Below are positions 15,328-51,554 of a stretch of DNA of 64,000 bases, in pieces. This stretch comes from Vicia villosa (lineage: Eukaryota > Streptophyta > Magnoliopsida > Fabales > Fabaceae): the NCBI RefSeq assembly GCF_029867415.1, contig NW_026706279.1, positions 1-64,000 of the forward strand, written 5' to 3'. Numbering within the stretch: position 1 is the first letter of the stretch; each line of letters starts with the position of its first letter. Under the pieces are notes generated by a model that was not told where the DNA came from, searched no databases, and saw nothing but the letters and a program-made list of their open reading frames with translations. Made by a program: the position numbers and the translations under genes.

Positions 15328-15448
15328 AGGTCGACCTATGCAGAACCTGAGTCGACCAAACAGTACAGAAAGCCAAAAATCTATTTTTCCTTCAGTTAGG
15401 TCGACCTAGAGGAGTTTTGAGTCGACCTAAAGCAGTTTACGTCGACCT
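15328..15448. other. Phased GTCGAC palindromes in the solo Tekay LTR
   Basis: GTCGAC starts at 15330, 15351, 15400, 15421 and 15441, giving intervals of 21, 49, 21 and 20 bp. Two copies are the full 10-bp palindrome AGGTCGACCT. Between the pairs lies the text CCAAAAATCT. Confidence 0.92.
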
Positions 15449-16345
15449 AGGGGTTCAATTTTGAGCAGATTTTGTAAAGACCATAACTTTTGATCCGTAA
15501 CTCCGTTTTAGGCGCCGTTCGAAGCGTTGGAAAGCTAACGCAATGAACTATACCATGATGCAATAAAATGATCCATATGATATAGTTTCCTATTATGTTT
15601 ATTAGGATTAAGTGGTGAACTATGTTGTGTTAATATATGAAGTATGCTCTTTGCGATGAATTGACATGACTATGTTGTAGTATAACTTGATGTATGTTTT
15701 CTTATGATGATACAATGTTATTAAGATGATGATAAGTAACTTCCTTATGATGAATGAGATAATGATGTGTGTGATGATATGCATGATTAATAAAGATGTT
15801 GTATGCTATATGCGATTAATTGTGCGTATTTGATATGTATGAGTCGACGATGATGCCATGCGATGACTTAACAATATATATATGAAATTGAATATAATGT
15901 ATTATGATGATTACTTGAATTAAGGAATATGATGAATGTGTTTATGTTGTTGGCAATATGATGAATCGTTGATGTTTGTTATAATATGATGGATTTGTGG
16001 TTGTTGTGAACATGACGAATTTGTTATCATTGTCGCTAGTATGTGGAAATTGTTGTCGTTGTCGTAGACCCTATGGTCACTATTGATAAGTTGTATTATG
16101 TTGATAAGAATGAAGTTGAATAGATGTTGTATGTCGATATGATGTGATGATGTGATTGAGATGTGGTAAATTGCTATGATACGGTTATTGCCATAGAACC
16201 TTGGCATTGAGTTGATGTTGTTTAGTTTATGTGGTTATGTTGTTTAAGTTGATTATGTCATTCAAGTTGATTATGTCGTTTAAGTTGATTAAGTGGTTTA
16301 AGTTGTGTTTGTGGATGTGCATCATTTGAGTCGCATCCATTGCAT

Positions 16346-16455
16346 TGTTTGAGACGGCCCTTGTGGCAAATGTTTGAGACGGCCCTTGTGGCAAATGTTT
16401 GAGACAGCCCTTGTGGCAAATGTTTGAGACGGCCCAATGGCAAACTATTTGAGAC
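16346..16455 (+). repeat. 25-bp tandem repeat in solo LTR
   Basis: Just over four copies of TGTTTGAGACGGCCCTTGTG plus GCAAA. The first three are nearly perfect and the fourth is shortened. Read on the minus strand they give an artefactual repetitive ORF (16258-16518). Confidence 0.93.
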
Positions 16456-17851
16456 GGGAGTTTTACTCCAATGGTACCACATGCATATGCATAAGTTTGA
16501 GTCACATTCGAGTCCCATTTGAATTGTGTTTGGATTGTTGAGATGACGAGGTGTTTGTTGTGACGTGATAATGATATGTTTGTTGTGATGTATTTGATAT
16601 CATACTTGTATATTTGAATATGTGATTAATGACATCGTTTCCGTTTTCGAAAGTTGTATTATATTGATAAGTTGTTTTGCGATGAAAATATGTTGTGAGA
16701 TGTTATGTGATGTGAAGTGGTGAAATTATGTATGATCTATATCTCCTATATTATTTATCATGCATTTCTTTATATTGTAAGATATCTCACCCCTTTGCTG
16801 ATATTTCCCCTACCATGAGAAATGGGCAGGTACTCAAGATTAGTCATGGATGTTCGAGGTTATTGATGTGAAGTCTTTATGTTGCTTTATGGCAAGTCGA
16901 GTTGGTGTCCATTGCTCTGATACGTAGCACTCGGGGGGAATTAGTAGTTATTACTTGATTGTTGTATTCTATGACGATATTTGTGTTGAGTTGAATTGAA
17001 AGATGTCTATGAGTTGAAATTGGAAGTTATTGGATAAAGTTTTGTTTCCGAATGCTATGTATCTTTGTTGATTACAATATGAGTATGTTTGTTTGTTTAA
17101 GTCGAATTGTGACATCCCATCTTTGATGAATATTTTTAAATGCACTCTGATTTCCGATTATATTTGCGGGGTAGATTTGGGGTGTTACACTCACACCCAA
17201 ATCAACAATCACACACAAAGATATATTATGCACACAACTCATTTATGTAATGCAACTACATTATGCAACTCGATGCATATGCATGTGGTACCAACTCAAT
17301 ATTTGATTCTCTCAGGAATCGGGCCCCCTCTCTGAAACCACGAGCCCCCTATATTAGCTCTAAGACCTCTCTCCGAGCTTGGTACAAGCCACTAGTCCCC
17401 TCTCTGAACTAGCAAACATGGCTCTTGACTTAACTCAGATGATGCATGAATCATACATATCAAGGTCAATGCGTTAAGACCCCTCTCTGATCCTAACAGA
17501 ATGCACTGACGACTCTTGTAATTCACTCTCTAGATTACTAGGCAAACACATTCACAAATGCACAACACAACTGAAATCAGCGCAACACAATTATTAAATA
17601 ATTTCAAAGTCATTAGTACTCATCATATCCAACATAACATCAACAATCCATGTAATCCACATCAATTACTTAGGTTATCACAACACATTCAGCCCTTGAA
17701 AATAATTCTATTTGATAATAATTCAAGTTAGCTTTCCAACATTTCAAACGATAACTCATTTGAACTTACGGGTCAAAAGTTATGGCCAAAGTCGTCGGGG
17801 AATACAATTTAAGTTAAAATGATAATTTTTTTTTCAAATTATGCCCAGTAT

Positions 17852-17992
17852 GTGTCGACTCCTAAGGAGCATGCGTCGAATCTTGGGACTTATGTGTCGA
17901 CCTATGAGACTTATGTGTCAACTTCAAAAGGACAAAAAGTCTGAATTTAAAAACAACTCAGTATGGTCAACCCATACGACGTGTGTGTCGAC
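17852..17992. other. Phased GTCGA motifs in the host Tekay LTR
   Basis: GTCGA/GTCAA starts at 17854, 17875, 17896, 17917, 17966 and 17987, giving intervals of 21, 21, 21, 49 and 21 bp. The 49-bp gap is the same as in the solo LTR copy. Confidence 0.92.
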
Positions 17993-18953
17993 TCCCAACT
18001 GCAAAATGCATAATTTATGCGTTTTCTCATCATTGGAGGCCTTCTGGACCTTCGTTTTCGATTATGTAAAAAGGCTCTAGTCTCAGAATTCGATGTACTG
18101 CAATTAACTAATGAGTTAAACAACAATTTAACACATATAATTATTAATTTTCTCGAAAACATATTAACCCCAAAGCTTCAATCTTCAACAATGGTGGAAA
18201 ATATTAAGATTTCAAAATAGTAAAATCACACATAATCATACAGGAAAATTCATTATTAATTCAGCCAGTAACATCATAATAGCAAAATTGAATTCATATT
18301 AGAGTGAGTGTTCTTCCTTCTTCAAGCTATAGTCTCCTTCTCCCAAACTCCTGCTTCTTACTCTTTTTCTCAACAATTCTACATACTGATAAAACTCTTT
18401 TCTCCTAACTCCCCTTTTAAGATAAAAACCTAATTTCCTAATTAATTCCTACCTTACCCTCACATTTTTTTCTAATTTCCCCATTGTTCTCAATATCTCT
18501 ACAAACTCCTATTTTCCCTTTTATCTTACTATTTTATTTAAATAATAAAACTAAAATATTATTTTAATGATAAAATAATTCTAAATAAAATCTACCAATT
18601 TCTAATTACTCTCTACACTCCCTCCCAAGGTCACACACCCCTACCACCCAAATTAATTTAATTATTGCCACACAATAATTAAATAAACACATAAATTCAT
18701 AAATAATATAAATAATAAATAAGATAATCTAAATCTGGGGTGTTACACCCCTCACCTTACAAGCTGATTTTATATAAATGAGTTAAATATGTGATTATGT
18801 GTAAAAGATGAAAGAAAAATATTATTAATAATAATTATTGACTTATTAAAAAAAGACTCAATACTAATATCAAATATGAGGCTTTTCACTTCTTCACATC
18901 GCCATGGTCATTTTACTAGTGGGACGTAGACATCCTAAGTTCTTTTTTCGTCG

Positions 18954-19377
18954 GTGTCAAAGCAACTGAAGTTCCTTATCGTCAAAGTAGACTACTTCAC
19001 AAAGTGGGTAGAGGCAAAGGCCGTCTCCAAAATAACGATAGGGAGGATTCCACGTTTCTATTGGCAACAAATTATATTATTGGCAACAAATTATATGCAG
19101 GTTTGGTCTACCCAGAGTCATCATATCAGTCATTCAATTACATATAATTTGCTAGTTCTACCATGATGAATATTTGCCATCGCCTAGGGCTACAGACAAA
19201 GTTCATCTTACACATCCACATGCGACATATGATCCTTAATCTCAGCATCACTCGACTCCCGATTCAAAATAAAATGGTAAGTCTTGATGAAATTTCAAGT
19301 TTCTTCTCCATTCAAATTACTGACCTCTATCTTTACGGTAATCAAAGCAGGGGAGGTTGAAGCTCTTACTAACATCC
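18954..19377 (+). pseudogene. Decayed Ty3/Tat-type integrase fragment
   Basis: The start of the fragment reads KVDYFTKWVEAKAVSKIT, the integrase core signature that includes the first catalytic Asp in Tat-clade elements. Frameshifts follow. A second frame gives GLVYPESSYQ-like and LGLQTKFI-like text, matching the order of the downstream core. The segment ends at the insertion point of the retroelement at 19378. Its flank resumes at 25253-25372 and is then split again by the CACTA element. Too decayed to function. Confidence 0.65.
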
Positions 19378-20843
19378 TGAAATTCTGGTAAGACAGAACC
19401 CGGATGTCATATACGATGTCGTGACATCTGGTCTGTCATCAGTTTTAGCTGAGGCAGTACATACAGATCCCTCAATTATTTATTACTTCTAACATCCAGA
19501 AGTCTGGAAGTGTTGGAATCACAGAGATTCTGTGTTAGCACAGTCATTAAATCACACACTGATGTCAGGCACGATGTTATGACATCCAAACTGAACTTAC
19601 AAATAAACAATGCAGAAACATAAACAACACAACAGAATTGTTCACCCAGTTCGGTTCAATCAACCTACTCTGGGGGCATACCAAGCCAGGGATGAAGTCC
19701 ACTATTAGCAGTATCAATTCAGAGCTAAACTCCCAGTTTACAACTCCTCACTTAATCACTACCCAATGACCCCTCTACCTAGGTTCTCCCTAGATATGGA
19801 ATATCTCCATTCCACTCCCAATCATACCAATGATGTCTAGCAGTCAACACCTCAGCCACTGCATTGACGGCTTAATTACCAACATTCAAAACACACAAAT
19901 AAACATATCTTAGAGTTGCTTCAAAGCTTCCTCCAAGCACACAACTCCACTCATTGCTTTACAACTTCTGAGTGAATAAAACAAACCTCTTACCTACAGG
20001 CTTCGAGGCACAAATCAGTGACCTTCCCACAAACCGGGAGGTTCACCTACACGGCTAACCCTAATAGTTACATCTTTCTAAACGCCGGCTAGCTCCCTAA
20101 ACTAGGTTACAAAGTTTCCTATTTATAACCTATTCCCAACTGGACTTGGGCTTACAATCACAACATTATTTGCTGTTACAAATCACAGAAAACTTTCTGC
20201 TAAAAACAAGGTCTTCAATCATAAGTTTCCTAATTTATCTTCATAATTGGAAACTGCATAATTCTCCAATATTCTAATCTTGATTCTCTTGACCTTTAAA
20301 CCTGCCACATAGGATTGCATAATATTCCAAAGAATATTCTGCATCTTTTGAGTACTTACTGAATCTTTATAGCAGGCGCGTGACAGCTAAATATAACAGT
20401 AACTGCTGTCAAATACTGATGTCACAGAGCATGCCGTGACATTCCATAGAACATCTTGATGCTGTACCTGTTCTGCATAAATCACAGCAAACAGTATTCT
20501 TCACTTCAATTCTCTGCTTCTCACATATCAGGATGCCAAAAAGACAGCCCATGATTTGTTCTATTACTGATGTACAATCAACATAATCTTTAGTTTCCCA
20601 AAATAAAGACTAAGATAAATAAGGAAACATAATAGAAACAGAATAGAAACTGTAGCAGCTACTGCTGTCAAACACTGATGTCATGACGTCGAGCATGACA
20701 TCCAACTCACAGCATGTATTAGCTTACACAACCAGAACCTGCATAACCTTTAACACTACACACAACATGTCATGACCTTAGTCAAGACAACAGAATACAC
20801 ATGAATGTTTTCCCACAAAATGCAGCCAATCAAAACATCTACA
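19378..20843 (-). repeat. Left (3') LTR of the Sirevirus-like element
   Basis: 1466 bp with TG...CA ends. The minus strand has a TATA-like GGTTATAAATAGG at about 20119-20131. It carries four dyads GATGTCA-N12-TGACAT(C/T) at 19403-19428, 19561-19586, 20418-20443 and 20677-20702. Confidence 0.95.
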
Positions 20844-20861
20844 ATCTCCCCCTTTGGCAAA
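20844..20861 (-). other. Polypurine tract
   Basis: The minus strand reads TTTGCCAAAGGGGGAGAT immediately before the 3' LTR, the plus-strand primer of a Copia/Sirevirus element. Confidence 0.85.
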
Positions 20862-23767
20862 TTTTTGGCTAAAACATTCTGTCACCACAGCAGCACAAAA
20901 ACAACTAGCAAACTACCAGTTATGCAGAATTGCTAAAGCACATCAAAACATCAGACCTGCTGAATAAGTTCCACAAGCTACACTATCACATACCATGAAT
21001 AGAAATAACTTGTTCAATATGATCTGGGGTGACAATCTCTTCTCCCCCTGTTTGGCCATAAATGTTGCCAAAGCAACGTACAGCTCCCCCTTAAAAGTTA
21101 CTCTGCATGACATGACCACGACACACACAAAAAAAACACCATCTGATAATCTTTAGATACCACTTCGCCACCAGCTTGATTAGAATACAATAAGTCACCC
21201 TCAATGGGAGATCTATATTACAAGATGCACTCTTTCATAGATAGCTCATAACTTCTACCACAAGCTCCAAGAGGTGAATAGAAAACACCTCCTTTTTGTC
21301 TTCAACTTATTACTCTTCTGCTCAAAAGTAATTTGTCTAAGACTATCCTCAAGAATAATCAGCTGCCATATGTTGATTATCTTGATCCTTCGAACCCACT
21401 TCTGAGATGAACCAAATGTCAACACATTGTGTTTTAACATCTAGCTGTTGAATTCAGCTCCTTCTTCTGCCACTTGAAAGAACTTCCTCCCTTTACAGAA
21501 CCAGAGTTCAATGCTCTCATAGACCTGATTGTGAAACCAAGTTTGAGTACGCAACCTCCATCCTGCAGTTATGCAGTTATGTCATCCAAGCTCACACTTT
21601 TATGAATCCCTGCTTTTTTTCCAACAACATCAGACACTCTGATGCATGAGTCATCAGAAGGACTAGTTAGAGACTAATCCTCTAGCTGTACCAAGGATGC
21701 CACTTCCTTGAGCAAAGCTATTTCCATGATGTCAAGAATACTGCCACTTGTTCTTGACTTCACAGTGTGCATTAGCCAATGCACTTTCTTACCTAGATCA
21801 GAAATAAACTGATCCAAGTAACCACCATCAAGATTATGATGTCTTCTTCTTCTTGTGCACTCCAAAGCTGAACATGTTTCTTGCCAGGAAACCTTTTTCA
21901 GTGATCACATGCTTCTGCTGCCACCAAAGAGATAGATCTTAAAACAATTGCACTATCCTTCCTGTACATGGTCTTGAAGAAGAGATGTTCCAACATCTTT
22001 AAGAACATCAGTTATCTTGAACTTCCAAGGATAATCAATTAAATACTTGTACTTTGCACAAATATCAATTGATCTTAAATCCTTTCCCAGTTAGATTCAC
22101 CCTTAGGAAAGAGAGAGATGAATCTTTCCTTACAAATGTGTCACACAACAACCAGAACCCATGTGACACCGTTCAATAGCCAATTAAACACAAGGCTGAA
22201 TCAGACGTGGGGAGGTTAACCAAATCTCCCCCTCAAACAAGCAATCATGGAAACTCCACACAGCTTATCCATGCATTGTACATAAAAGTCTCATTATACA
22301 ACATCCCTACTAGAGGCAACTAACTCCATGAGTTATACCTATACATACTTCATACACCAGTTGAGGATACTATACTTACATAAACCATGGTTAACAGAGA
22401 TACCATACAGCGGAAAACAACTAAAATTTATCCTCAATAAACCTCAGGCCTAAAACAATAACCTTTGCATCAGTCAGCTACACATCATTCATGATTAAAT
22501 ATATGCCATATCTCAACAAGGTTTCTGGAACAGATTCACTTATGACATAACTCCTGAAAATACCTCAGATTCCACACAGTAATCTGACTCCCTTGAATCA
22601 TCACACAATATTCAAAACCATATTTCACTATGCACGATACACAGTATTCAGTTTTCAACACTAACTGTTCTATGGTTAAGAAAACAATTCACACATCTGG
22701 TTCCTTTGATCAAAAGGACATACCAGATACAAGCTCATCTTTGGATTTTCATAGAGGTCTTGAAAAGAAAACCTGAATGAATCCTTTCACTTACACTGAG
22801 CTCTTCTTCCAACTCCCATAAGCTTATGCCTGAAATAAACTAACATTTGGGATGGAAGGTTCAATTGATTGTATTCTGACCAATCAACACAAAAAGCAGA
22901 TGTCTCCTCTTCCAGATCAGGAGTAGGTTCCAAACAAATGTACTCACACTACATAAGTTCAGCACCAGAACATCTGTTCTTCAACTGGTAGCTGCAAACC
23001 AGTATGCCATCAGTTCCTTCTTCTTGGAACACACAATTCTTGACAATCTTGAGGATTATCAAACAACTTTGCAGATGAACATGAGGAACACTGATCATAT
23101 GAACCTCTTCAACCTCAATAACCATGCCTTTATGAGTGGACTTGAGAAAAAATCTCAAGTATCTTTGACACTTGTACTAAAGTTGAAAACAATCTGCTAC
23201 AAATTCTGTTGAAAACCATATAACCCTAGAGATCTTCTTTCAAAGATAGGATTATGCATCAGATGCTATGCAGCAGAAAATAGCCATATATCAATAGAGA
23301 TTACACAATGCTTACTCCCAGAACCAGTTGTAAGCATGACATCCAAGAATTGCAGCTGAACAATCCAACAATATGCTTGCTTCTTCTTCAAGCAACACAA
23401 CAAGACCTAACCAATATTCTGACCAGAAAGAAACAGATAAGCACAAAGAATACCTTATCATTAACTTCACTCCCGCATGAAGGTTTTGACAATCTTCTTC
23501 TCTGTACCTTGCTATATGCTGAATAAAACACCCCAAATTCTTCACTCCCGCATGAATCATTTGGATATCCTTGAAACCAGTAACACCATCTTCCCTTGCC
23601 AAGAGAATACACCTGTTTTGGTCAGTTTGGTCCAGTCTTCCACACATAGGTCCATCCTCCACTTCTAGGGACCATTCAATATGAACATGAATGTTCAAAC
23701 AATCAACTACCTCCAACAACCAGAAAGTATCTCCCATGGATCTCATCCAGAAACAGACAGGATGCCT
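20862..23767 (-). other. Non-coding interior of the Sirevirus-like element
   Basis: The longest minus-strand ORF is 144 aa (23746-23312). It starts shortly after the primer site and contains no motif I recognise; it may be a leader or a relic. Other ORFs are under 80 aa. On the minus strand the sequence is enriched in short GGGGGAG tracts. I see no retroviral enzyme motif in any frame. A captured host fragment cannot be excluded by eye. Confidence 0.6.
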
Positions 23768-23779
23768 GCTCTGATACCA
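23768..23779 (-). other. Primer-binding site (initiator tRNA-Met)
   Basis: The minus strand reads TGGTATCAGAGC, a perfect match to the standard Copia primer site, two bases inside the 5' LTR. Confidence 0.92.
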
Positions 23780-23781
23780 AT

Positions 23782-25247
23782 TGAAATTCTGGTAAGACAG
23801 AACCCGGATGTCATATACGATGTCGTGACATCTGGTCTGTCATCAGTTTTAGCTGAGGCAGTACATACAGATCCCTCAATTATTTATTACTTCTAACATC
23901 CAGAAGTCTGGAAGTGTTGGAATCACAGAGATTCTGTGTTAGCACAGTCATTAAATCACACACTGATGTCAGGCACGATGTTATGACATCCAAACTGAAC
24001 TTACAAATAAACAATGCAGAAACATAAACAACACAACAGAATTGTTCACCCAGTTCGGTTCAATCAACCTACTCTGGGGGCATACCAAGCCAGGGATGAA
24101 GTCCACTATTAGCAGTATCAATTCAGAGCTAAACTCCCAGTTTACAACTCCTCACTTAATCACTACCCAATGACCCCTCTACCTAGGTTCTCCCTAGATA
24201 TGGAATATCTCCATTCCACTCCCAATCATACCAATGATGTCTAGCAGTCAACACCTCAGCCACTGCATTGACGGCTTAATTACCAACATTCAAAACACAC
24301 AAATAAACATATCTTAGAGTTGCTTCAAAGCTTCCTCCAAGCACACAACTCCACTCATTGCTTTACAACTTCTGAGTGAATAAAACAAACCTCTTACCTA
24401 CAGGCTTCGAGGCACAAATCAGTGACCTTCCCACAAACCGGGAGGTTCACCTACACGGCTAACCCTAATAGTTACATCTTTCTAAACGCCGGCTAGCTCC
24501 CTAAACTAGGTTACAAAGTTTCCTATTTATAACCTATTCCCAACTGGACTTGGGCTTACAATCACAACATTATTTGCTGTTACAAATCACAGAAAACTTT
24601 CTGCTAAAAACAAGGTCTTCAATCATAAGTTTCCTAATTTATCTTCATAATTGGAAACTGCATAATTCTCCAATATTCTAATCTTGATTCTCTTGACCTT
24701 TAAACCTGCCACATAGGATTGCATAATATTCCAAAGAATATTCTGCATCTTTTGAGTACTTACTGAATCTTTATAGCAGGCGCGTGACAGCTAAATATAA
24801 CAGTAACTGCTGTCAAATACTGATGTCACAGAGCATGCCGTGACATTCCATAGAACATCTTGATGCTGTACCTGTTCTGCATAAATCACAGCAAACAGTA
24901 TTCTTCACTTCAATTCTCTGCTTCTCACATATCAGGATGCCAAAAAGACAGCCCATGATTTGTTCTATTACTGATGTACAATCAACATAATCTTTAGTTT
25001 CCCAAAATAAAGACTAAGATAAATAAGGAAACATAATAGAAACAGAATAGAAACTGTAGCAGCTACTGCTGTCAAACACTGATGTCATGACGTCGAGCAT
25101 GACATCCAACTCACAGCATGTATTAGCTTACACAACCAGAACCTGCATAACCTTTAACACTACACACAACATGTCATGACCTTAGTCAAGACAACAGAAT
25201 ACACATGAATGTTTTCCCACAAAATGCAGCCAATCAAAACATCTACA
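23782..25247 (-). repeat. Right (5') LTR of the Sirevirus-like element
   Basis: Same length and, as far as I can read, the same sequence as the left LTR. It is followed by the CATCC target duplicate. Confidence 0.95.
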
Positions 25248-25383: not shown

Positions 25384-25770
25384 GCTGGGGCTTTAAAAGC
25401 GCTTTTTATGGGCTTTAAAAGCGCTTAAAAGCGCTGTGAAAGCCAGTGCTGGCGTAGGTAACAAAAGCGCTTCAGAAAGCGCTATGGTAGGCTCCCCCTA
25501 TAAGAGCGCTTTTCTGGAAAAAGCGCTCTGGTAGGCCCCCCCTATAAGAGCGCTTTTCTGGAAAAAGCGCTCTGGTAGGCCCCCCTATAAGAGCGCTTTC
25601 CTGGAAAAAGCGCTCTGGTATCCCCCCTCTATAAGAGCGCTTTTCCAAAAGCGCTTTCGTATGTTGCGTTTTTTTTTTATGCTTTTTTATTATTCTTTGG
25701 CAGCGCTTTTACTAAGAAGCGCTTTTGTAGGTGGACCTTTAAGAGCGCTTTTCAAAAGCGTTGTCGTTGC
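25384..25770. repeat. CACTA left subterminal repeats
   Basis: AGCGCT motifs are arranged as inverted pairs, for example at 25505/25522, 25549/25566 and 25592/25609. These are 17 bp apart inside a pair and 43-44 bp from pair to pair, separated by GGTAGGCCCCCC-type linkers. In En/Spm such arrays are bound by TNPA. Confidence 0.9.
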
Positions 25771-25815
25771 TAAATGATGTATTTTAATGTGCAGCCTGTA
25801 ATTTAATCCTCCCAG

Positions 25816-29778: not shown

Positions 29779-32700
29779 CTAACGTCTCTTTCTTTTCTTG
29801 GTAGGATTGTGTTCTACGCGTCTCTTAACAACGCGGACGGTTGGATTGATCCAAATACCCTCATTATGATCATTTCTAGTACAAGATTCATTTTCATTTT
29901 GATCGTTTCTTGTAGAAGATTCAATGCCAACACCAATATCACCTTGATGTTCAATGTTTTCATCAACTATTTTGTTAGATAAAAGCACTATAGACCATTT
30001 CGTACTTGTCGGATCATTGACATAGAACACTTGTTTAGCTTGAGAGGCTAGAATGAAAGGCTCATCTTTGTACCCTACCCTATTGAGATCCACTTGCAAA
30101 AATCCTGACTTATCCATTCGTATGCCACTATTATTTTCAACCCACTTGCAACCAAATACAGGAATTTGAAACTTCGCGTAATCAAACACCAAAATGCGCT
30201 CGATAACCCCAAAATATGACAAATTTGCAAATTTCGGATTTAAGTCATTCGCACTTGATATGTGCATTGCTTCAGCTACCAAGGTAACACCACTATTTTG
30301 CATAGTACTTTTATCATCCTGTTCTTTGGTATAAAATGTGTATCCATTAATTGCGTATGCGCTATAAGAAAGCACAATTACACTTGGACCATAGGCTAAA
30401 CATCTCAACCTTTCTGTTACTGAAGCAGGATCTGAACAATACTTTGAATAAATATGATCCCTAAACCACGGTATGAAACTTCGATTGTGCTCTCGTACTA
30501 TCCAGTTCTCATTTCTATTTGGATTTAAATCTCGGAGAACAACCTTGTGCATTTCAACATACGACTCAACCTCAATCTCATTGTGCAGAACATACAAGTG
30601 CGCTTGATCCCGTTCGACCATTGATACTGTCACAACTTTATTTCCAATTAGCCTTTTTCCTTTTTTTTTCGACAATATGAGATTTGGGGAGTCCAATTGA
30701 TTGAACATTTGACAGATATTCAGTACAAAACTCAACCGCTTCTTCAACAATGTATCGTTCGGCAATACAACCCTCCGGTCGACTTCTGTTTTTCACGTAC
30801 CCTTTTAATATTTTCATATAACGTTCAGCAGGGTACATCCATCTCATATAAGCTGGTCCGCACAATTGTGTCTCTTTCACAAGATGAACGACTAGATGAA
30901 CCATTATGTCAAAAAACGAGGGAGGAAAATACATTTCAAGATCACATAAAGTAACAACTATCTCTTTTTGCAATGTTGGTAAGATCGCGGGATCGACCAC
31001 CTTACTGCAAATTGACCTGAAGAAGAAACACAGCTTAGTTATTGCGCTTCTTACTTTTTCTGGCAGAATAGAACGTATACCTATTGGTAAAAAGTGTTCC
31101 ATTATAACATGGCAATCATGCGTCTTCAAACTCTTTAACTTGAGGTCTTTCATGGACACAAGTCTTTTAATATCTGAAGAGTAGCCTTCTGGAACTTTAA
31201 CTTCACTGAGGAACTTACACAATGTTTTCTTCTCCTTTCTAGATAGAGTGTAAACAGCAGGTGGCAGATATGTTCGTTTTCCTTTCGTCACGGGTCCCAA
31301 TTCAGTTCTCATTCCCATGTTTACCATGTCCTTCCTTATGTTGAGGCCATCCTTAGACTTTCCTTGTATATTGAGTAACGTACCTATGACGCTGTCAAAT
31401 ACATTTTTTTCAATATGCATAACATCCAGGAAATGTCTTACGTACAACGACTTCCAATATGGAAGTTCAAAAAAAAATTGACTTCTTCTTCCACCCACCC
31501 TTGACAAGTGAATGTGCAAAAGGCTTGCCAAACTGAGTGCTCACATCTTTCACCTTTTCAAAAATTTGATCACCTGACAAAGAAGGCAGGGCTGTACCAT
31601 GTTTGGCCTTTCCATTGAATGCTTTTCTCCACCCACGGTAGTGATGATTAGAATTTAAGAATCTACGATGGCCGAGAAAGACATTCTTCTGACAAAGCTC
31701 CAATCGTGTCGTATCGGTTTCGTCTTCACAAACAGGACACGCCTTTTGACCTTTATTGCTGTACCTGGATAGATTTCCGTATGATGGAAAATCATTAATT
31801 GTTCCAAACAACATCGCCCTCAAGTTGAAACTTTCCTTCCTATACCCATCGTAAACCTCCACACCGTTCTCCCACAAAAACTTTAAATCTTCGATTAAGG
31901 GTGCCAAGTATACGTCTATGTCATTCCCTGGTTGTTTAGGCCCATAAATTAGCATAGATAACATCATGTACTTACGCTTCATACATAGCCACAGAGGTAG
32001 GTTATAAATCATAAGAATCACAGGCCATGTGCTATGCGAGATACTTTGAATACCATGCGGGTTCATTCCATCAGTAGACAATGACAACCAAAGGTTTCTT
32101 GCTTCTTTTCCAAATTCAGGATAATCAGTATCAACTTTCGACCATTGTGGTGAGTCTGCAGGATGTCGCAACTTTCCATCAATAATTCTTTCATCTGCAT
32201 GCCAAGTCAAGTGTCTTGAATCGGTCTCACTACGATACATGCGTCTAAATCTCTGAATTATAGGAAAATACCATAAGACTTTAGCAGGAGACAACTTTTT
32301 CTTATATCGAGGGGCACCACATTTAGGACACTCATTCAACGCTGCATACTCGTTTCGAAACAAAACGCAATCGTTTGGACATGCATGTATCTTATCATAG
32401 CTCATGCCAATAGAGGACAACATCTTTTTGGCCTCATACGTTCGATTGGGAAGAACATTATCATCTGGTATCATATCTTTCATAAGGGCTAATAACTCTG
32501 TGAAACTTTTATCCGACCATCCATTGTCCGCCTTTAAGTTGTACAACTTTAACACCACAGACAATCTTGTGAATTTTGTACAACCCTCATACAACGGTTT
32601 CTCTGCATCACTTACCAACCTCTCAAACATTTTGGGACAATCCGCAAGATCTTCTTCAAGCGCTTCTGCAATCTCTTCGACTCGATCGCAATCGTATGTG

Positions 32701-32990
32701 TCTGTGCAATCATCGTTTGAAGCATACTTCCTATTACAACTCGACTCAGCATTCCCGTTACTTTTCTCACCATGCATTGTCCAACATGTATAACTTCTAT
32801 CAATTCCAAACCGTAGTAAATGGGATGCCAACTTATTCCCGTCAACCTTACCCCCATAACAGCAACCCAGGCAAGGACACGGCATTCGAAGCGGGTCTTC
32901 GGAGTGCGCAACCGCAAACTCAACGAATTCCCATACCCCTTTCTCGTACTCTTTCGACAATCGGTTTGAATTCATCCATGTCTTATCCAT
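29779..32990 (-). pseudogene. CACTA TNP2 transposase, two one-base frameshifts
   Basis: Three overlapping frames (32990-31467, 31531-29779 in two steps with the join near 30660) give one TNP2 protein of about 1070 aa. The N-terminus has the transposase-associated domain (MDKTWMNSNRLSKEYEKGV; cysteines in MPCPCLGCCYGG). It is followed by a zinc-like CPNDC...CPKCGAPRY segment and the TNP2 core (STDGMNPHGIQ, PGNDIDVYLAPLIEDLK, HFLDVMHIEKN). The second segment has a DUF4218-type domain (HFLPIGIRSILPEKVR, MYPAERYMKILKG) and the third a DUF4216-type domain. The first break is a run of nine A (31469-31477 plus strand) and the second a run of nine T (30661-30669). In each the reading frame calls for eight. 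Because both breaks are in homopolymers, sequencing error is a serious alternative to real decay. Confidence 0.9.
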
Positions 32991-32999
32991 GTCTTAATT

Positions 33000-34680: not shown

Positions 34681-35010
34681 TACTAGAGCGCTTTTCAAAA
34701 GCGCCTTTGTATCCCCTTCTACACCAGCGCTTTTTGAATAAAAGCGCTTTCGTATCCCCCCTTTACCAGCGCTTTTGAAAGCGCTTTCGTAACCCCCCCC
34801 CCCTTTACCAGCGCTTTTTAAAAGCGCTCTCGTACCCCCCCCTTTACCAGCGCTTTTTGAAAGCGCTCTCGTACCCCCACCCTTTACCAGCGCTTTCTAG
34901 AAAGCGCTCTCGTACCCCCACCATTTACCAGCGCTTTTTCCCTTGTTTTTTTTTTGTTTTTAGCGAAATCTATAAGAGCGCTTTTTCCTAAAAGCGCTCT
35001 CGTAGGGGTG
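34681..35010. repeat. CACTA right subterminal repeats
   Basis: At least six blocks of ACCAGCGCTTT...AAAGCGCT(C/T)TCGTA separated by C-rich linkers, mirroring the left end. These are the presumed sites for the element-encoded DNA-binding protein. Confidence 0.9.
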
Positions 35011-42603: not shown

Positions 42604-43955
42604 CTGATGTGAGTATGAAGTGTGCTTAAGAGGGGGGTGAATTAGGTTCTTAAAATTTTTATCGGTTTTCGGTGATGTTTGGAATATTTTTTCGGTATAT
42701 GGTGAGTTTATGTAAGTAGTAAATTGCATAAAAATAAATGACACAAGGATATATTTATGTACCCCTCACAATCCAAGAGTACTCTAGTCCCCTTACGCAG
42801 TAAGAGATTTCAATATAGTTGGTAACTTGTACAAGACAAATCAAAAACACCAAGAACAATCCTCTTGGATTTTACACTAAGCCCACTAAGAGAACAATTC
42901 TCTCAAAGTGACTCTCTTGCTTCCAACAATCCTGGACAACAAGGTTACAAACAAACAATCTTATTTTCAACAATTCTAAAAAATAAGATATGGATATAAT
43001 AAGAACTTTTTGAATAGAAATTTATAGAACAATGATCACTTTGAGTGAATTATCAATTAAATTGATCTTCTATTCCAATAACAATAATTCACAAGTACTT
43101 AAAGTAATAGATTGCTCAAGTATTGTTTGGTTTGGATAATATAAAAGTGTGCAGAAAATATCTTGAATAAAGGTTGAAGAATGACAATGTGAATTCTAAA
43201 AATTTCTAAAATTTTGATTGGAAGAGGTAATTTGTGATTTGAAATTCTTTGTATTTATATGTGCATAACACCTTTTTGAAACATGGCAAGAGAATGGAGA
43301 ATTACCATGAATAAATGTCAAGTTGAAATGAAATGGTTCCATGAAGTGGTGCATGAAAGGGTGTTGAAAAAGCTACTTTTTCAAATTCGTACAGGGTGCA
43401 ATCGATTTCACAAAAACAACAATTGATTGCACAAGGGCCAACAACTATATTTTTTCAAAAAGTTTTAGTGGGCAATCGATTGCACCAATACAGCAATCGA
43501 TTGCACAAAGAAGACCAAAAATCTGCTAAGTGTTTTTAGGCAATATTTTTGAAAATGCTCCAGTGAGCAATTGATTGCACCCTAGTAGCAATCAATTGCA
43601 TGGATAAGGCAAAGGCATATTTTGGAAACTGGAAGAGAGAACAATCGATTACTTTAAATGTGCGATCGATTGTACATAGTGAAAAATGGAATTTTTGTCT
43701 AAGTATTTAGTGTTATGGTTATGGCAGAGGTATGTAATGATTTTTGATGTTTTGAGCAACTAAGACTTAAGTATTTAGTGAGAGTTATTGTTATACCTTC
43801 TTTTTTATGTTTGAACAATAGTCTTGACTAAAAATGCTTTATGTTTGAATAACATCCTTGCCTTCTTGATACTAAGAGATTTGTCTTCATCAAAACAAAG
43901 TTCTTCATTCAGAAGCTTGAGTTCACATATGAGTAGAACTCAAAAATCTTGGTAC
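42604..43955 (+). repeat. Unclassified LTR-like sequence (possible solo LTR)
   Basis: It begins near TGTGAGTATGAAGTGTGC, followed by TTAAGAGGGGGGTGAATTAG, text common at the start of certain legume retroelement LTRs. It may end near GAGTTCACA (about 43932). The flanks TCTGA and TATGA differ by one base, so the duplication is only suggestive. It carries eight ATCGAT-type palindromes in four pairs (43399-43673). Confidence 0.45.
43399..43674. other. Four pairs of ATCGAT-type palindromes, each pair 21 bp apart
   Basis: Cores start at 43401/43422, 43475/43496, 43570/43591 and 43644/43665. Each pair is separated by exactly 21 bp, and the pairs begin 74, 95 and 74 bp apart. Several copies are the full CAATCGATTG. 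Some have decayed to CAATTGATTG while keeping position. Confidence 0.93.
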
Positions 43956-43959
43956 ATTT

Positions 43960-45733: not shown

Positions 45734-45756
45734 CAGTGTAAAATAGTTTTACACTG
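45734..45756. other. Perfect hairpin CAGTGTAAAA-TAG-TTTTACACTG
   Basis: A 10-bp stem with a 3-base loop, in text (ATGCACTGACAGTG) common to the ends of a legume MITE type. The matching far end is not clear. Confidence 0.6.
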
Positions 45757-45861
45757 TTTTCCAATAGAAAACAAACAATCTGCCATATCATTAAAAAAAA
45801 ATTTAAAATAAAAGTCTGGCGTAATTAGATACATGAGTGTGATTGGTTGACAGTATCATCC

Positions 45862-45867
<6 letters not shown>

Positions 45868-45915
<48 letters not shown>
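45868..45915. repeat. (TA)n microsatellite
   Basis: About 45 bp of TA dinucleotides. Confidence 0.95.
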
Positions 45916-45918
<3 letters not shown>

Positions 45919-46436
45919 ATATATTTTATATTACTAATTGTAATAAAATTTTATCATATACAATATAACTTAGCAATTAGTTTTTAGTTTTTATTATTTA
46001 AAAATTAATAATTACGGAATGATTTTAATTTTATTTTTAAATTATTATTTTAAAAATAAAATAGCTTCTAGGTTCAAAAAGTTATAGGTCAAACATACAT
46101 TAATACTGTGATGCAGTAATTTCATCTTAAATTCAAATATTAATGCATTGATGTTAAGAGATTTGAACTTTAAATTAGTGGTCAAAAGTTTTATTTTGAA
46201 TTCTGACGTATGAAAGAATGTTTGAAAACAAGAAAAACTCACTTAGTGTATTTAACATATTCTTTTGATGGAGATTAGTTATTATTAAAATATTTACAAA
46301 ATATTAATTTAATAAGACAGCTCAAATTCGTTTTAGACCAAATAATTGTCGGTGGGAGATAAACAAGTACTCAATTGATTCATTAAATTTGCTATTTCAG
46401 AGATTTCTTGTATGCACACCAAAGTAACTAAGAAAA
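45916..46436. other. AT-rich intergenic sequence
   Basis: I see no gene or identifiable repeat here. Confidence 0.6.
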
Positions 46437-46438
46437 TA

Positions 46439-46696
46439 CTCCCTCCGTTCTCAAATATAAAGCAGAAAAAAAAAAACTATGGTCTTATATTTAAGAAAAA
46501 AAAAATATTTATTACATTTAATGTCACTATTCCAAATATACCCCTACAATTTTTTAGATTTTAAATGTTTGCAACAATTTCCAAAGCAAAAAATAGGGGT
46601 AGAATTAGAAAGAGAGTAAAAATTAAATGCATTAAGACATTCTTCTTAAAGGGTGAGCTTCTTTGCAAATTTGTTTATATTTGAGACCGGAGGGAG
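46439..46696. mobile_element. Stowaway-like MITE (258 bp)
   Basis: CTCCCTCCGTTCTCAAATAT at the left and ATATTTGAGACCGGAGGGAG at the right form inverted repeats flanked by TA (46437-46438 and 46697-46698). Same family as the MITE at 13265-13536. Confidence 0.92.
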
Positions 46697-46698
46697 TA

Positions 46699-47320
46699 GT
46701 GTAAATAAGAGTAGGTAGAGGAAGGTTGATGGTGATGGCAGGTGATGCACATCTTAATTAAATGCAGTAGTTAATAAAGACACCATTCATTCATGGTTGT
46801 TAATAAATCAATACTGCTTACTCTCATTTTCTTTTCCAGCACACCAAAGTAGTAAATACTGTATTTATTTGGCCTAGTAACATGACAGAGACACATTAAG
46901 GTTGTTATTGGTTTTTGTTTACAAATGGCAAAATACTGAAAGTGAATGTGGATGAAAAATAAAGGAGTTATTTAAAACAAGGGTAATGCTAACATGTGTC
47001 CTAAGAGTACATATTAAAAAATCTACATTTAAAAAGTTTGTCTTGAATAAAATAAAAAATAAAATTAATTATTGCATAAATAGCACTATAATCTGTCTGG
47101 TACAATCAACTAGGAGTGGACGGACATTGGTCAGTTTGGGTTGGATTCGGATATAATATATCAAACCGGCATAAACCATGGATGCAATTATTAGATCTAA
47201 TTCCGACTGATTTTTACTTCGGTTTGATCGGTTTTGGATAGATCGATATATCGGTTAACATGGATCGGTTTGTTCGATTAATTGATCCTAAATGTTTGTT
47301 TTAAAAACCTATATTGTTAA
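46699..47320. other. Intergenic, decayed repeat-like text only
   Basis: Contains GGTTTGATCGGTTTTGG-type text near 47220 typical of non-autonomous DNA elements, but no inverted ends or target duplication could be defined. Confidence 0.4.
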
Positions 47321-49761
47321 TCTCGGAAAGCGGCGCGGAGCGGCCTACTCTAAAATGGGAGCGGCGCAGGCGCTATTTCAGTGGTGCGGACACTAAAAAA
47401 TAGGCACTTACAAGCCGATAACATACTAATAAATACAAAAAATGAACTCAAACTTCATATGTCTTAAGCAATAAAATACTTTCAAATAAATAATACCATA
47501 CTTCCCATTCCAAATACCATTAAAAGGCATGTCTTAATCAAAAGTGCAAAACATTGTTACAAACTTTCAAATATTAATAAAATTTATCAAAATAAACACT
47601 TACGCATCTAAATCTTAAATTAACTAAACATGAAAACTCTAATAAAAATTCACAAATCATTAAAAGTTAAGTCTTCATCATCTCTTCCTTCCTCACTAGC
47701 ATCCTCTTCATCCTCTTCATACTCTTCATCCTCTCCAATATATTCTCCATCATCAAATTCATCATCTACTACTATCACTTCCTTTGCTTTTGGCTTAGAT
47801 CTAGATGAAGAAGGCGGTGGAGGTGCAGCCGCGTTCTTTTGCAATGCTGCTTGGCTCATAGTGTTGATTGCAGGCTCAGCAGCACCACTTGCAATTTCAA
47901 CATCTAGCCAAGACAAATCCTCACCATCAAACACCATATCATTATCAGGTTCAGGTTGAGTCTCATCTTCACCTCCCGACAACCATAGGCTACGAGTATC
48001 AAAATCATCTTCCATTACCACAAGATCAATCAAATCATCACTGTCAAAGCGCTCTTTCAAATTTTGACTGTACTTGATAAAAACCAAGTCTTGCAACATT
48101 TGATGTTCAAATCTATTTCTCTTCTTGGAGTGAATCTATATTATAATTTTAATTTTAGTTAAAAGAAATAAATATACCAAAGAAATAAGAATTAATTTGA
48201 ATCTATAACTTAATAACAACTACTTACATGCTCAAAAGTACTCTGATTCCTCTCACAACCCGATGAACTACAAGTAAGACTCAATATTTTAATAGCAATG
48301 AGTTGCAAATTTGGTGTTCTTGCTCCATACCTCCTCCACCACTCAGCTGCAATGCAACAATTATTTGTATTAACATATATAAACAAATGGTTATGTAATT
48401 AATTTATTGTGAAATAGACATAGTTACTTACTAGGAGCTACATCGACTCTTTGCCTTACCGCTTCATTCAATCCAAAGTGGCCTGCACCCATCTTATATT
48501 TCACCAATTCTCCATGGATGTCATCAATAACTTTATCACTTGCAGAAAGCTTATTAATGCATGCATAAAAGCCATCCAACAACTTATCGTCATTCTCAAT
48601 CATTGGATTTCTATAAAAGTACTTCAGATTAAGATAATACCCAGCTGCATGTAACGGATGATGAAGTTGAATACTCCATCTTCTATCAATAATATCAATG
48701 ACTTCTTTGTACTTGGCTTCATTATTGTTGAAGTTTTTTTAATTAACTCCTTGGCTTCCAACATTGCATGATAGATGCTTCCCATGCTTCTTCTCATTGT
48801 CAACAAGCCTAAGTACTTTTACAAGAGGCCCCATGGTTTTAAGAGCAAACACAATATCCTCCCAAAATGAGACTTGAAGAACAATAGCAGCCACCTTCTT
48901 TCCTTTCACCTCCTTACTTGCATTCAAGTTCAACCATTCTTCCGAAGTGAGCATGGGTCTAATTTTTGACTTTAGAGAGTGCAGTCTGTGCAGAGTAAGA
49001 AAGTTTATGGCAAACCTTGTAACTCCACTTCTAACCTACTCACTTTCTAGTTTCTCCCTCATTTAGTTTAAAACCAAAGAATGGTTGTAAATGAAGCCCA
49101 CGAGAGTCATTCCTTTTTATATAACCTTCTTGACTCTTGCAATTTTTCTGATATCTTCTAGCATCAAGTCTAGACAATGAGCAGCACATGGAGTCCTAAA
49201 TATCTTTGGCCTCAATACTTGAAATTTCCAGCCAAGACATAGTTGCTTCTATTATCGGTAACAAGTTGTACAACATTACTTTCACCAATCTCTTCTACAA
49301 AGCTATCCAAAAGTTCAAATAACTTTTGTCTAATTTTCATGTAAGCAGATACATCAACACTTTTAACAAACATTATACCTGCAGGAGAATTCACCAAAAA
49401 GTTGATCAATGTTCTTCCCTTTGTATCGGTCCAACCATCATACATTATAGAGCGACCATACTTTTCTTGTTCTTTCTTATTAGTACTCAACATCTCATGT
49501 GTAAGTTTCAACTCTTCTTGAAGCATAGGAACTATCAACTCATAGTAGCTCGAAGGCTTCAAATGTGCACCATACATACCAATTGCTTCAACATTCAATT
49601 TTAAACTTTTAGAATTTGCAACATTGAAAGCAATTCCATTACGATAAAATAAACGAGCTATGTATTTGCAACAACTCGATCTTGCTTTCTTATCACATGC
49701 ATAATTCAATCTTGTTTGTTTTCCTTTTTTAAAGTTTCCTAGGGTTTTCTATAGTAAATTA
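47320..49761 (-). mobile_element. hAT transposon remnant
   Basis: A GC-rich stretch (AGCGGCGCGGAGCGGCC near 47331) like the subterminal part of some plant hAT elements precedes the transposase pseudogene on the left. The right part is cut off at 49761 by an Athila-like LTR. The terminal inverted repeat and 8-bp duplication cannot be assigned. Confidence 0.6.
47650..49737 (-). pseudogene. hAT transposase (DUF659 and dimerisation regions), broken
   Basis: From the right: KKGKQTRLNYACDKK then CKYIARLFYRNGIAFNVAN (N-terminal linker), then the DUF659-type core SIMYDGWTDTKGRTLINFL and NVVQLVTDNRSNYVLAG with the catalytic-type Asp residues (49709-49212). Next is PCAAHCLDLMLEDI-like text with a stop, SEEWLNL...FWEDIVFALKTMGPLVKVLRL (48954-48739), a frameshift, MGSIYHAMLEAKELI, WWRRYGARTPNLQLIAIKIL (hAT dimerisation region), an intron-like gap, and an acidic C-terminus (48099-47650). 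At least two frameshifts and several stops. Its N-terminal zinc-finger part is missing beyond the Athila insertion. Confidence 0.88.
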
Positions 49762-50383
49762 TGATCGCGACTTTACGTGTCTCTTAGTCGGAAAACTGCA
49801 AGTGCACAGTCGTGTCATGTAGTTTTAAAAGATATCGAATTCACAAGGACTATAAATCGATCTACCGTTATATAAAGTTACTATGTAAAGCTAAGGCTAA
49901 TGAATATTTTTTTGGAGGGAAATTAATTAACGGGAAATAAAACTTAGATCTAGATGAAATATTAATGGGCGGATATCGGTATGTAATTCGTCTAGCTTAG
50001 GTGATCCGAAGTTCCATTGGCCAGGTTCTTTATCAAATAAAAAATCTTTATTAAATATGTCCGTTTAAAAGTCCTACTCTCAAACTCTCGCTCTATTGAC
50101 TTAGACTACGATCCTAGCTCATAATGTACGCTCTCGCTGTCCCATCAGATTTAGAAACGCCTTTGGAAAACAACATAATTAATAAAATACCTTTTTCATG
50201 TAAATATTATTTACTTAAAAACCCTTGTCTCAAACTCTCGCTCTATTGACTTAGATTATGCTAATAATCCCTAACGTACGCTCTCGTTGTCCCACCGAGT
50301 TTAAAAACACTTTTTGAAAATAAATAATATCTAATTAGTTTTAATACGCTCTCACTGTCCTTAAAACTAATGTTCTGTGTCTA

Positions 50384-51554
50384 TGTTGAAAGTATTTGTG
50401 GGTAAATATTTTCGGTAATATATCGTATCCACAGGGATTGGTTAATATCACTGCCGTTCTATAGTTGTTTATTTTGAGTTAAGAAATTTGGTTTGGTTTG
50501 TTTTATACTAATAGTAATATCAAAAGCAAATAATAAAATAAAAGCAAGTAAAGGACTTTGTGTTAACAATTAAAGAAAGATGTTGAGTCTTTAGGGTTCA
50601 TCAACCTAATCCTATACAATTATCAATTAATTCTCAATAGAACAATCCTTTGAATCATTATCTTCACTTATCCTCAAATAAGATTCCATGTCTGCAAATC
50701 AAATTAGATAACTTTTACCGGTATGAGATCCGATCTCTCCAAATCACAATAACGATAATAGTAATTAAGAACGATAATTATGAAAACCCAATTACAATTC
50801 CATCTCTGCAAATTGCAATTGAATCAATATAGTAACCTAGGGCAAAAGTTAAATCCTTTCTTTCGATCAAAGATTCAACAATGATGTAAATTAAAAGCAA
50901 GGTTTCTTATTGATAATAAATTCAAACAATTGTTCACAGGAATTAATCAATGGTAATGTATATTCATAGGTTAACTACTACCTTAGACTCAACAAGAGGG
51001 ATTTAGCTCTCCATAGACATGAAGAACATACAAGAATCAATGGAGGAATTCATCTTCATCAATAGAATGTCTTCGATTGGTAAAGAATCCACCTTCAATT
51101 GTTGTTCTCAGCTTCAGAATCAGATAGCTCTCCTAATTTCGCTCCCACAAAGTATATCACCACTTGGAAAACTAGGGCTTTAAAACAGAACTTTTGGGCT
51201 TTTAACGCCGAGGCCGCGGCGCGGCAACGGGCTGGCGCGGCGCGCCCCTCAAACAGAAGTATTTTCGCGGCGCGCCTAGGAACTCTCGCGGCGCGCCCTT
51301 TGTACTTTCCATCTTTTTCTTCACCCTTTGAGACTTCCAGCTTTCTTTCCTCCTCATGTTCTTCTTAAGTTCTTATTCAGCTCAAAACCTGCAACAATAA
51401 CACCCACAAGTGATTCGATTTGCTTTACGCACGAACTAAACTTATTCAGTTCAATTCTTAATAAAAACCTATGGATTCATCACATTTTTGCATTGGTTTA
51501 GAGAAGAAATCACTTATATTAACACATGAATTTACCATTAATTTACTCCTAACA
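50384..51554 (-). repeat. Left (3') LTR of element B
   Basis: 1171 bp. Near 51210-51298 it is GC-rich, with four CGCGGCGCG motifs. Small ORFs inside are duplicated exactly in the right LTR and are not genes. Confidence 0.95.
51213..51298. other. Phased CGCGGCGCGCC motifs in Athila-type LTR
   Basis: Starts at 51215, 51236, 51266 and 51287: pairs spaced exactly 21 bp, 30 bp between pairs. The last three contain the palindrome GGCGCGCC. Confidence 0.92.

What the first reader, a model, noticed from the sequence alone, without database searches (positions are those of the whole stretch)
15328..51298. A shared LTR design: family-specific palindromes, common 21-bp phase
At least three LTR lineages (Tekay-like, an unclassified LTR, Athila-derived; loosely also Athila A at 56503-56662) show different palindrome cores (GTCGAC, ATCGAT, GGCGCGCC, GGAGAC..GTCTCC) in the same geometry. 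Sequence homology cannot explain it, since the cores are unlike. This suggests convergent selection, for example for binding of a multimeric host factor, for pairing or hairpin formation in the leader RNA, or for a family-specific address that must differ between families. To my knowledge this is not a standard LTR annotation.
Basis: partly seen in the sequence, partly recalled or inferred. Interest (0 to 1): 0.88.

Follow-up and report, generated by a model that had tools for sequence, protein, structure and literature searches.

The report
Paired palindromes, fixed 21-base spacing, LTRs
Several unlike families of plant jumping genes carry, near their control switch, pairs of mirror-image DNA words set almost exactly 21 bases (two turns of the helix) apart, which looks like a shared docking layout whose recognition word changes from family to family.

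Summary
In the window GTCGAC, ATCGAT and GGCGCGCC palindromes recur at 21 bp; "Athila A" does not fit, and the window alone gives modest support (P 0.012-0.031, families counted once). The window lies in a 2.03-Gb plant genome that could be searched. There ATCGAT pairs number 22,119 (control 125), 46 of 50 listed places at exactly 21 bp. GTCGAC pairs number 50,332 (control 1,316), 58 of 63 listed at 21-22 or 39-40. ACCGGT, found in a sample drawn without regard to palindromes, numbers 3,177 (control 2), 67 of 71 listed at 21-22. Pairs recur every 72-74 bp, in GTCGAC also 61. A TATA-like box follows the array closely in 4 of 7 GTCGAC loci. Partner sites show no hairpin covariation. Family-specific palindromic boxes upstream of the TATA box are published for Sireviruses (2010), and much of this is that feature: an exact Sirevirus junction lies beside one GTCGAC array. 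What I did not find in print is the fixed two-turn spacing shared by unlike palindromes, or arrays in probable Ty3 LTRs. Most likely reading: cooperative sites for dimeric proteins. The protein is unknown.

The parts
14498..17189 (+). solo LTR 'Tekay A' (TGTAAC...GTTACA, target duplication CTCAC), holds GTCGAC array A
15327..15446 (+). GTCGAC array A, five palindromes, spacing 21, 49, 21, 20
15481..15539 (+). 59-bp box (ATAACTTTTGATCCG...GGAAAGCTAAC) after array A, 76% identical to the one after array B
   Evidence: blastn E 1.6e-07
17190..18747 (-). part of a second LTR of minus orientation ('Tekay B'), interrupted by LTR A; holds array B
   Evidence: its far end left of 14497 was not fixed
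17854..17992 (-). GTCGAC array B, six sites (two GTCAAC, one GTCGAA), spacing 21, 21, 21, 49, 21
11624..12928 (-). Ty3-type reverse transcriptase and RNase H remnants on the strand of LTR B; that they belong to LTR B's element is inferred from position
   Evidence: Pfam RVT_1 and RT_RNaseH
43399..43676 (-). ATCGAT array: eight sites in four pairs, 21 bp inside each pair, pairs 74, 95, 74 apart
43253..43265 (-). TATA-like box ATATAAATAC about 140 bp downstream of the ATCGAT array on the minus strand
50384..51554 (-). 3' LTR (minus orientation) with GGCGCGCC sites; identical to 54489-55659; target duplication GTCTA
   Evidence: (100% identity over 1171 bp)
54489..55659 (-). 5' LTR of the same element; primer-binding-site-like stretch at about 54470-54488
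51239..51297 (-). GGCGCGCC array, three sites, spacing 30, 21 (second copy 55344-55402)
56503..56662 (-). GGAGACG..CGTCTCC dyads, centres 31, 41, 47 apart: does not share the 21-bp spacing
19378..20843 (-). 3' LTR of a Sirevirus element (19378-25247) with GATGTCA-N12-TGACATC-type dyads at 19403, 19561, 20418, 20677
   Evidence: polypurine tract and junction

Best explanation
The arrays are enhancer-type binding platforms in LTR promoters. Each palindrome is read as double-stranded DNA by a protein dimer. Two palindromes two helical turns apart (21-22 bp centre to centre) put two dimers on one face of the helix, so they bind cooperatively. Pairs are repeated at 61 or 72-74 bp. The layout is kept while the recognised word changes between families. 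Shown: palindromes, spacing, genome-wide excess, a TATA-like box close by in part of the loci, lack of partner covariation. Inferred: dimer binding, cooperativity, activation of transcription.
For: Spacing: ATCGAT 46 of 50 listed places at exactly 21 bp when 11-41 was allowed (counted); ACCGGT 44 at 21 and 23 at 22 of 71; GTCGAC 29 at 21, 12 at 22, 15 at 40, 2 at 39 of 63. Excess over the reversed pattern: 22,119 vs 125, 3,177 vs 2, 50,332 vs 1,316, and 1,002 vs 16 for GGCGCGCC. Blind sample: 40 Sirevirus junctions, 19 families, 5 with palindrome arrays (1 of 380 shuffled); 3 of the 5 have 21-22 as nearest spacing. Between-pair distances in GTCGAC families fall in steps of about 10.5 bp (39-40, 49-51, 61): R 0.91, p 0.0004 against uniform, eight family values; p 0.002 if two outlying distances, 42 and 63, to one-mismatch sites are added. 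Spacer letters differ between pairs while length holds. In 4 of 7 GTCGAC array loci a TATA-like match lies within about 65 bp of the array; in three of these four the match reads on both strands, and its chance rate was not measured. In a relative of the window's Sirevirus LTR the dyad arms are unchanged in 28 of 28 bases against 22 of 24 in spacers and 576 of 644 elsewhere.
Against: No protein, expression or occupancy data. Many listed places are copies of the same elements and all lie on contig 1, so the counts are not independent events. Not showing 21: ACGCGT in L051 (11, 19, 51, 40, 43, 11, 42), the SIRE dyads, Athila A (31, 41, 47), the GGCGCGCC relative L040 (26, 45). In 14 of the 19 sampled Sirevirus families no array was called, and in the family of 21 loci only one member has one. 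In the two GTCGAC LTRs of the window no TATA-like match lies just downstream of the array, and in the Sirevirus LTR of the window two of four dyads lie downstream of its TATA-like box. In a random 200 kb, 2 of 210 palindrome pairs were at 21 bp, with 5 at 19 and 4 at 22; no such array lay in it.
Confidence: 0.6

Rival explanations
1. Inherited layout without present selection: an ancestral Sirevirus array spread by tandem duplication and its geometry persists because insertions and deletions are rare, while palindromes turn over by concerted change.
For: Tandem units are plain: ACCGGT unit about 73 bp in L047, ATCGAT and ACCGGT pairs 71-74 bp apart, window ATCGAT array repeats at 169 bp; a GTCGAC array, ACCGGT and two ATCGAT loci lie beside Sirevirus junctions.
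Against: Spacers diverge in letters but not in length; unit length varies (61, 71-74, 85) while the 21-bp pair hardly does; GGCGCGCC elements have no Sirevirus sign that I saw, though they were not compared with Sirevirus LTRs by alignment outside the window.
Confidence: 0.15
2. Hairpins: the two self-complementary words of a pair, with a short loop between them, fold in RNA or single-stranded DNA and feed small-RNA silencing or leader function, as proposed for maize Sireviruses.
For: Predicted folds are better than shuffles for the two ATCGAT halves (z -3.75, -4.09), Athila A (-3.34), GTCGAC array A (-2.48) and one of three SIRE dyads (-2.16); three control stretches gave -0.90, -1.16, 0.56. 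Small RNAs map to palindrome-rich Sirevirus LTR regions (PMC10760457 and PMC5311732, passages read). In one window ATCGAT pair two decayed sites remain complementary to each other, 12 of 12.
Against: Over all pairs partners do not covary: GTCGAC intra 9.44, inter 9.38, non-partner 9.56 of 14 (39 distinct pairs); ATCGAT intra 12.92, inter 12.2, non-partner 11.68 of 18 (25 pairs). Folds of GGCGCGCC (0.22), array B (-1.27) and two SIRE dyads (-1.70, -0.83) are not unusual. A hairpin does not need an exact two-turn spacing.
Confidence: 0.12
3. An element-encoded DNA-binding protein (for example from the extra ORF) reads the array and protects its own family from silencing, as VANC proteins do for VANDAL transposons.
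For: VANC targets are short motifs in tandem repeats that differ between related elements (PMC5735166, passages read). At one locus a GTCGAC array with a TATA-like box stands between a copia reverse transcriptase and an extra ORF (L042, L033, L043).
Against: GTCGAC is used by several families, probably including Ty3 LTRs, which fits a host factor better; the extra ORF has only a sub-threshold Pfam match (26.5 bits, cut-off 45) and no DNA-binding domain was shown.
Confidence: 0.15
4. Nucleosome placement: the arrays are rotational or boundary signals, like the QuinCent stretch of a wheat LTR.
For: Steps of about 10.5 bp; PMC11302176 (passages read) reports such a stretch in an LTR and its likely exchange between a gypsy and a copia family.
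Against: From general knowledge, rotational signals are spread dinucleotides, not long exact palindromes; a unit of 72-74 bp is half a nucleosome.
Confidence: 0.05

Closest known systems
Sirevirus repeated-motif (RM) boxes (PMC2829016)
   Same: Family-specific palindromes, many copies, clustered in the upper LTR upstream of the TATA box and before the ENV-like gene; two listed words, ACAATCGATTGT and CGGTCGACCG, are close to two words here.
   Different: In the sections and term passages I read (9, 10, first part of 15) no spacing between boxes is given and they are reported as Sirevirus-specific among the Ty1/copia elements compared; here the spacing is fixed and similar arrays lie in probable Ty3 LTRs.
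Palindrome-rich cis region of maize Sireviruses (Bousios 2016, not held; seen through passages of PMC10760457 and PMC5311732)
   Same: Palindromes in the LTR regulatory region.
   Different: There studied as small-RNA hotspot; no spacing rule in the passages read.
VANC target repeats of VANDAL transposons (PMC5735166, passages)
   Same: Short binding words in tandem repeats that change between related elements.
   Different: DNA transposons; 'palindrom' and 'spacing' occur 0 times in that paper's main text.
Tnt1/Retrolyc1 U3 repeats (reference titles in PMC10760457, papers not read)
   Same: Subfamilies differ by their U3 regulatory regions.
   Different: Not compared; no palindrome pair geometry known to me.
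CACTA subterminal repeats in this window (25390-25750, 34685-35000)
   Same: Dense AGCGCT palindromes in a transposon end.
   Different: Adjacent spacings mostly 10-17 and 25-27 bp, none at 21.

Membership tests
Sirevirus RM boxes | palindromic repeated word with dyad symmetry | tested here: met
Sirevirus RM boxes | at least eight copies per element, clustered in the LTR | tested here: met
   window ATCGAT eight sites; L030 twelve array sites, L038 ten. Not met by GGCGCGCC (three per LTR) or GTCGAC arrays A (five) and B (six).
Sirevirus RM boxes | short distance upstream of a TATA box | tested here: inconclusive
   met in 4 of 7 GTCGAC loci (L030, L033, L037, L038); no TATAWAW match in L031, L034; L035 ambiguous. 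Window ATCGAT about 140 bp. Not found just downstream of arrays A and B.
Sirevirus RM boxes | CGG-CCG core | tested here: not met
   GTCGAC words mostly read AGGTCGACCT, ATCGAT words lack it (as does Tnd-1 in the paper), ACCGGT words hold CCGG
Sirevirus RM boxes | further copies before the ENV-like gene | tested here: inconclusive
   one locus: RVT_2 (E 3.9e-56), array, TATA-like box, ORF with sub-threshold PF20167; that the ORF is ENV-like was not shown
Sirevirus element | 5' junction CA/ATTGGTATCAGAGC | tested here: met
   window element 19378-25247; junction C1:1099521 (minus) 1.1-1.4 kb from GTCGAC array C1:1100638-1100941, on the LTR side. Not established for the window's ATCGAT LTR, whose ends were not fixed.
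Sirevirus element | Ty1/copia reverse transcriptase | tested here: inconclusive
   met for L042 (RVT_2). The polymerase nearest the window's GTCGAC LTRs is Ty3-type (RVT_1, RT_RNaseH), so those LTRs are not filed as Sirevirus; the link of polymerase and LTR is by position only.
VANC-type anti-silencing target | bound by a protein of the same element | not testable with these tools
   no binding data

The most novel reading that the evidence does not exclude
A general promoter code of plant LTR retrotransposons, in Ty1/copia and Ty3 alike: a fixed two-helical-turn pair of palindromes whose word is free to change. The binding protein belongs to one fast-changing dimeric family, of host or element origin, so that families wear different addresses on one common socket.
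Probability: 0.25. Interest if true: 0.9.

Novelty: new variant of a known kind. Interest (0 to 1): 0.74.

Why it matters
LTR promoters are usually compared by sequence, and U3 regions look unrelated between families. A conserved geometry with a changing word would show that they obey a rule that sequence alignment cannot see. It gives a simple, testable prediction (dimers two turns apart), a way to find control regions of silent elements, and an entry to the open question of which proteins switch the most abundant plant retrotransposons on or off.

Tried and rejected
Hairpin pairing by covariation: not supported for GTCGAC and not favoured for ATCGAT. Word unique to a family: rejected, GTCGAC and ATCGAT recur in several arrays with different flanks. 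'Athila A' as a 21-bp case: rejected (31, 41, 47). Viral contigs as a source of relatives: 5 loci (L001-L005) with spacings 22, 13, 30, 27, 23 read from match lengths, taken as chance; no relatives for the reverse transcriptase or, in viral and in prokaryote genome contigs, for the LTR box. Protein search with the ATCGAT stretch: nothing; with the GGCGCGCC stretch: three proteins, two of which (P0001, P0003) by my codon reading imply 22 instead of 21 bp. Random 200 kb: 2 of 210 pairs at 21 bp, no excess. Ends of the window's ATCGAT LTR: three target-duplication candidates, none convincing. CpG observed/expected: arrays A, B, ATCGAT and GGCGCGCC are richer than the rest of the LTR, Athila A and SIRE are not. 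The array finder asked for two exact copies, that did not; one search also printed two weak cases (L052, L055) that the later rule dropped.


Full report
Check of the observation. Same-palindrome pairs (six bases, at least two G or C, within 150 bp) number 208 in the window against a mean of 27.0 in 200 block shuffles. Much of this excess is the CACTA subterminal AGCGCT repeats. The commonest distance is 21 bp: 7 pairs against mean 0.165 and maximum 2. The seven include the GGCGCGCC pair twice, once per LTR, and one TTGCAA pair outside any array. With four LTR families counted once (GTCGAC, ATCGAT, GGCGCGCC, Athila A; the Sirevirus dyads not included), the sharing of a distance by three of them has a chance probability of 0.012-0.031, depending on the range allowed. 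From the window alone the claim would have been only suggestive.

Anatomy in the window. GTCGAC array A lies in a solo LTR, 14498-17189, with target duplication CTCAC; array B lies in a minus-strand LTR that the solo LTR interrupts. Blastn between them finds little: a 59-bp box (76% identity, E 1.6e-07), which follows both arrays, and a 21-bp exact stretch. The GGCGCGCC element has two identical LTRs of 1171 bp and the duplication GTCTA; the name Athila rests on a recalled primer-site resemblance. The ATCGAT array has eight sites in four pairs; two pairs carry sites in which the central CG has become TG or CA, as expected where cytosine is methylated. Its dyads are GATGTCA-N12-TGACATC. Their arms are unchanged in 28 of 28 bases in an LTR relative, against 22 of 24 in the spacers and 576 of 644 elsewhere; this is suggestive only.

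Genome-wide test. The window is contig 1356 of a 2.03-Gb assembly. Pattern searches give whole counts and list the first places. GGCGCGCC pairs: 1,002 against 16 for the reversed word; by reading, the listed distances are 21 or 30 but for one 29 and one 26. GTCGAC pairs: 50,332 against 1,316; of 63 unique listed places 29 are at 21 bp, 12 at 22, 15 at 40, 2 at 39, and one each at 12, 18, 19, 20 and 24. AATCGATT pairs with any distance from 11 to 41: 22,119 against 125; of 50 unique listed places at 23 loci 46 are at exactly 21, 2 at 22, one at 16, one at 34. The listed places all lie on contig 1 and include copies of the same elements, so they are not independent.

Arrays read in full. In nine GTCGAC arrays (window A and B, L030, L031, L033, L034, L035, L037, L038; L032, a satellite-like repeat with 40-46 bp, and L036, without an array, were set aside) adjacent distances are 19 once, 20 three times, 21 29 times, 22 nine times, 39 once, 40 eight times, 42 once, 49 twice, 50 five times, 51 nine times, 61 and 63 once. 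In twelve ATCGAT loci: 21 24 times, 22 once, 50 once, 51 four times, 52 four times, 53 twice, 35, 64 and 123 once. Pair-to-pair distances below 200 are 71-74 (18), 85 and 144 for ATCGAT and 72-74 (14), 143 and 145 for ACCGGT, and by addition 61 or about 72 for GTCGAC. Between-pair distances of GTCGAC families cluster at one phase of a 10.5-bp period (eight values, two of them averages of 50 and 51: R 0.91, p 0.0004; with 42 and 63 added R 0.78, p 0.002); periods from 10 to 12 fit about as well.

Blind sample. The Sirevirus junction occurs 4,823 times (2,435 + 2,388, control 0). I fetched a 1,151-bp piece upstream of 40 of the first 100 listed junctions. They form 19 families by blastn. Palindrome arrays were called in 5 families, and in 1 of 380 shuffled representatives. 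The five: L047, ACCGGT, 22, 51, 22, 51, 21; L064 and L066, TAATCGATTA-type, one pair each at 21; L051, ACGCGT, 11, 19, 51, 40, 43, 11, 42; L071, the SIRE-type dyad. In L064's family of 21 loci only this one member was called. Three of five families with nearest spacing 21-22 has a chance of 5e-05 to 0.009, depending on the null. The ACCGGT word was then searched in the whole genome: 3,177 and 3,131 against 2 and 4; of 71 unique listed places 44 are at 21 bp, 23 at 22, one at 23, three at 41. So the third word, found without looking for 21, obeys it. Fourteen of 19 families had no array called in the piece read, so arrays are not shown to be universal.

Relation to known things. PMC2829016 (sections 9, 10, first part of 15 and term passages read) describes palindromic repeated boxes in 13 Sireviruses, in the LTR upstream of the TATA box and before the ENV-like gene. 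Two of its words resemble words here. One GTCGAC array lies 1.1 to 1.4 kb from an exact Sirevirus junction, on the LTR side. At another locus a copia reverse transcriptase is followed by a GTCGAC array, a TATA-like box, an ORF with a sub-threshold PF20167 match, and a second array. So much of the pattern is a known kind. In the passages found, '21 bp' in that paper is a distance of another motif and no box-to-box spacing is given. Searches for palindromes with Sirevirus, Tekay or Athila, siRNA and hairpin, the words themselves, U3, tandem repeats and 21 bp, LTR promoter and dimer and helical turn listed no title or abstract that reports the spacing; most listed papers were not opened, most subscription journals are not held, and Bousios 2016 was not available.

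Mechanism. If partner sites paired as a hairpin, a change in one should be matched in the other. Over all pairs it is not: GTCGAC sites are as complementary to non-partners (9.56 of 14) as to partners (9.38), and ATCGAT flanks are more symmetric within a site (2.46 of 5) than between partners (2.32 outer, 1.88 inner). Two facts lean the other way: ATCGAT partners are slightly more complementary (12.2 of 18) than non-partners (11.68), which family-specific flanks can explain, and one decayed window pair is still complementary in 12 of 12, which opposite CpG decay gives half the time. Folding is better than shuffled for some arrays and not for others. Site-wise symmetry, two-turn distance, free spacer letters and position before a TATA-like box in part of the loci point to dimers binding double-stranded DNA side by side. 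This is inference; no binding was tested. That GTCGAC serves a copia element and probably Ty3 LTRs favours a host factor; several words on one layout leave room for a fast-changing protein of the elements.

Limits. One genome; copies are not independent; the Ty3 cases rest on two GTCGAC LTRs in the window and on the GGCGCGCC group (window 30, 21; L039 21, 29, 20; L040 26, 45), none assigned to Ty3 by its own polymerase. Exact per-gap counts did not complete.

Noticed in passing
window 19378-25247, and 94-805: Sirevirus with identical LTRs (1466 bp) and target duplication CATCC; an 86% identical LTR piece lies at 94-805. Dyads GATGTCA-N12-TGACATC have half-sites 19 bp apart.
   Followed up: partly
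window 15481-15539 and 17727-17785: A box ATAACTTTTGAYCCG...GGAAAGCTAAC follows both GTCGAC arrays in two otherwise barely alike LTRs.
   Followed up: partly
L033 with L042, L043 (C1:845000-849000): GTCGAC array with a TATA-like box between a copia reverse transcriptase and an extra ORF: looks like an internal promoter for the extra gene.
   Followed up: partly
window 25390-25750 and 34685-35000: CACTA-type subterminal arrays of AGCGCT palindromes on both sides of a Transposase_21 gene (31470-32993, minus).
   Followed up: no
L023 6755-6860: GCGCGTCGCGC-like palindromes in pairs about 19-20 bp apart in a stretch chosen at regular steps, perhaps another LTR array.
   Followed up: no
L051 58-282: TACGCGTA eight exact copies upstream of a Sirevirus junction with spacing 11, 19, 51, 40, 43, 11, 42: a related but different layout.
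   Followed up: no
window 6414-9158 plus strand: 915-codon open frame with a Transposase_32 (PF20167) domain; no palindrome array seen by eye in the 1 kb upstream.
   Followed up: no
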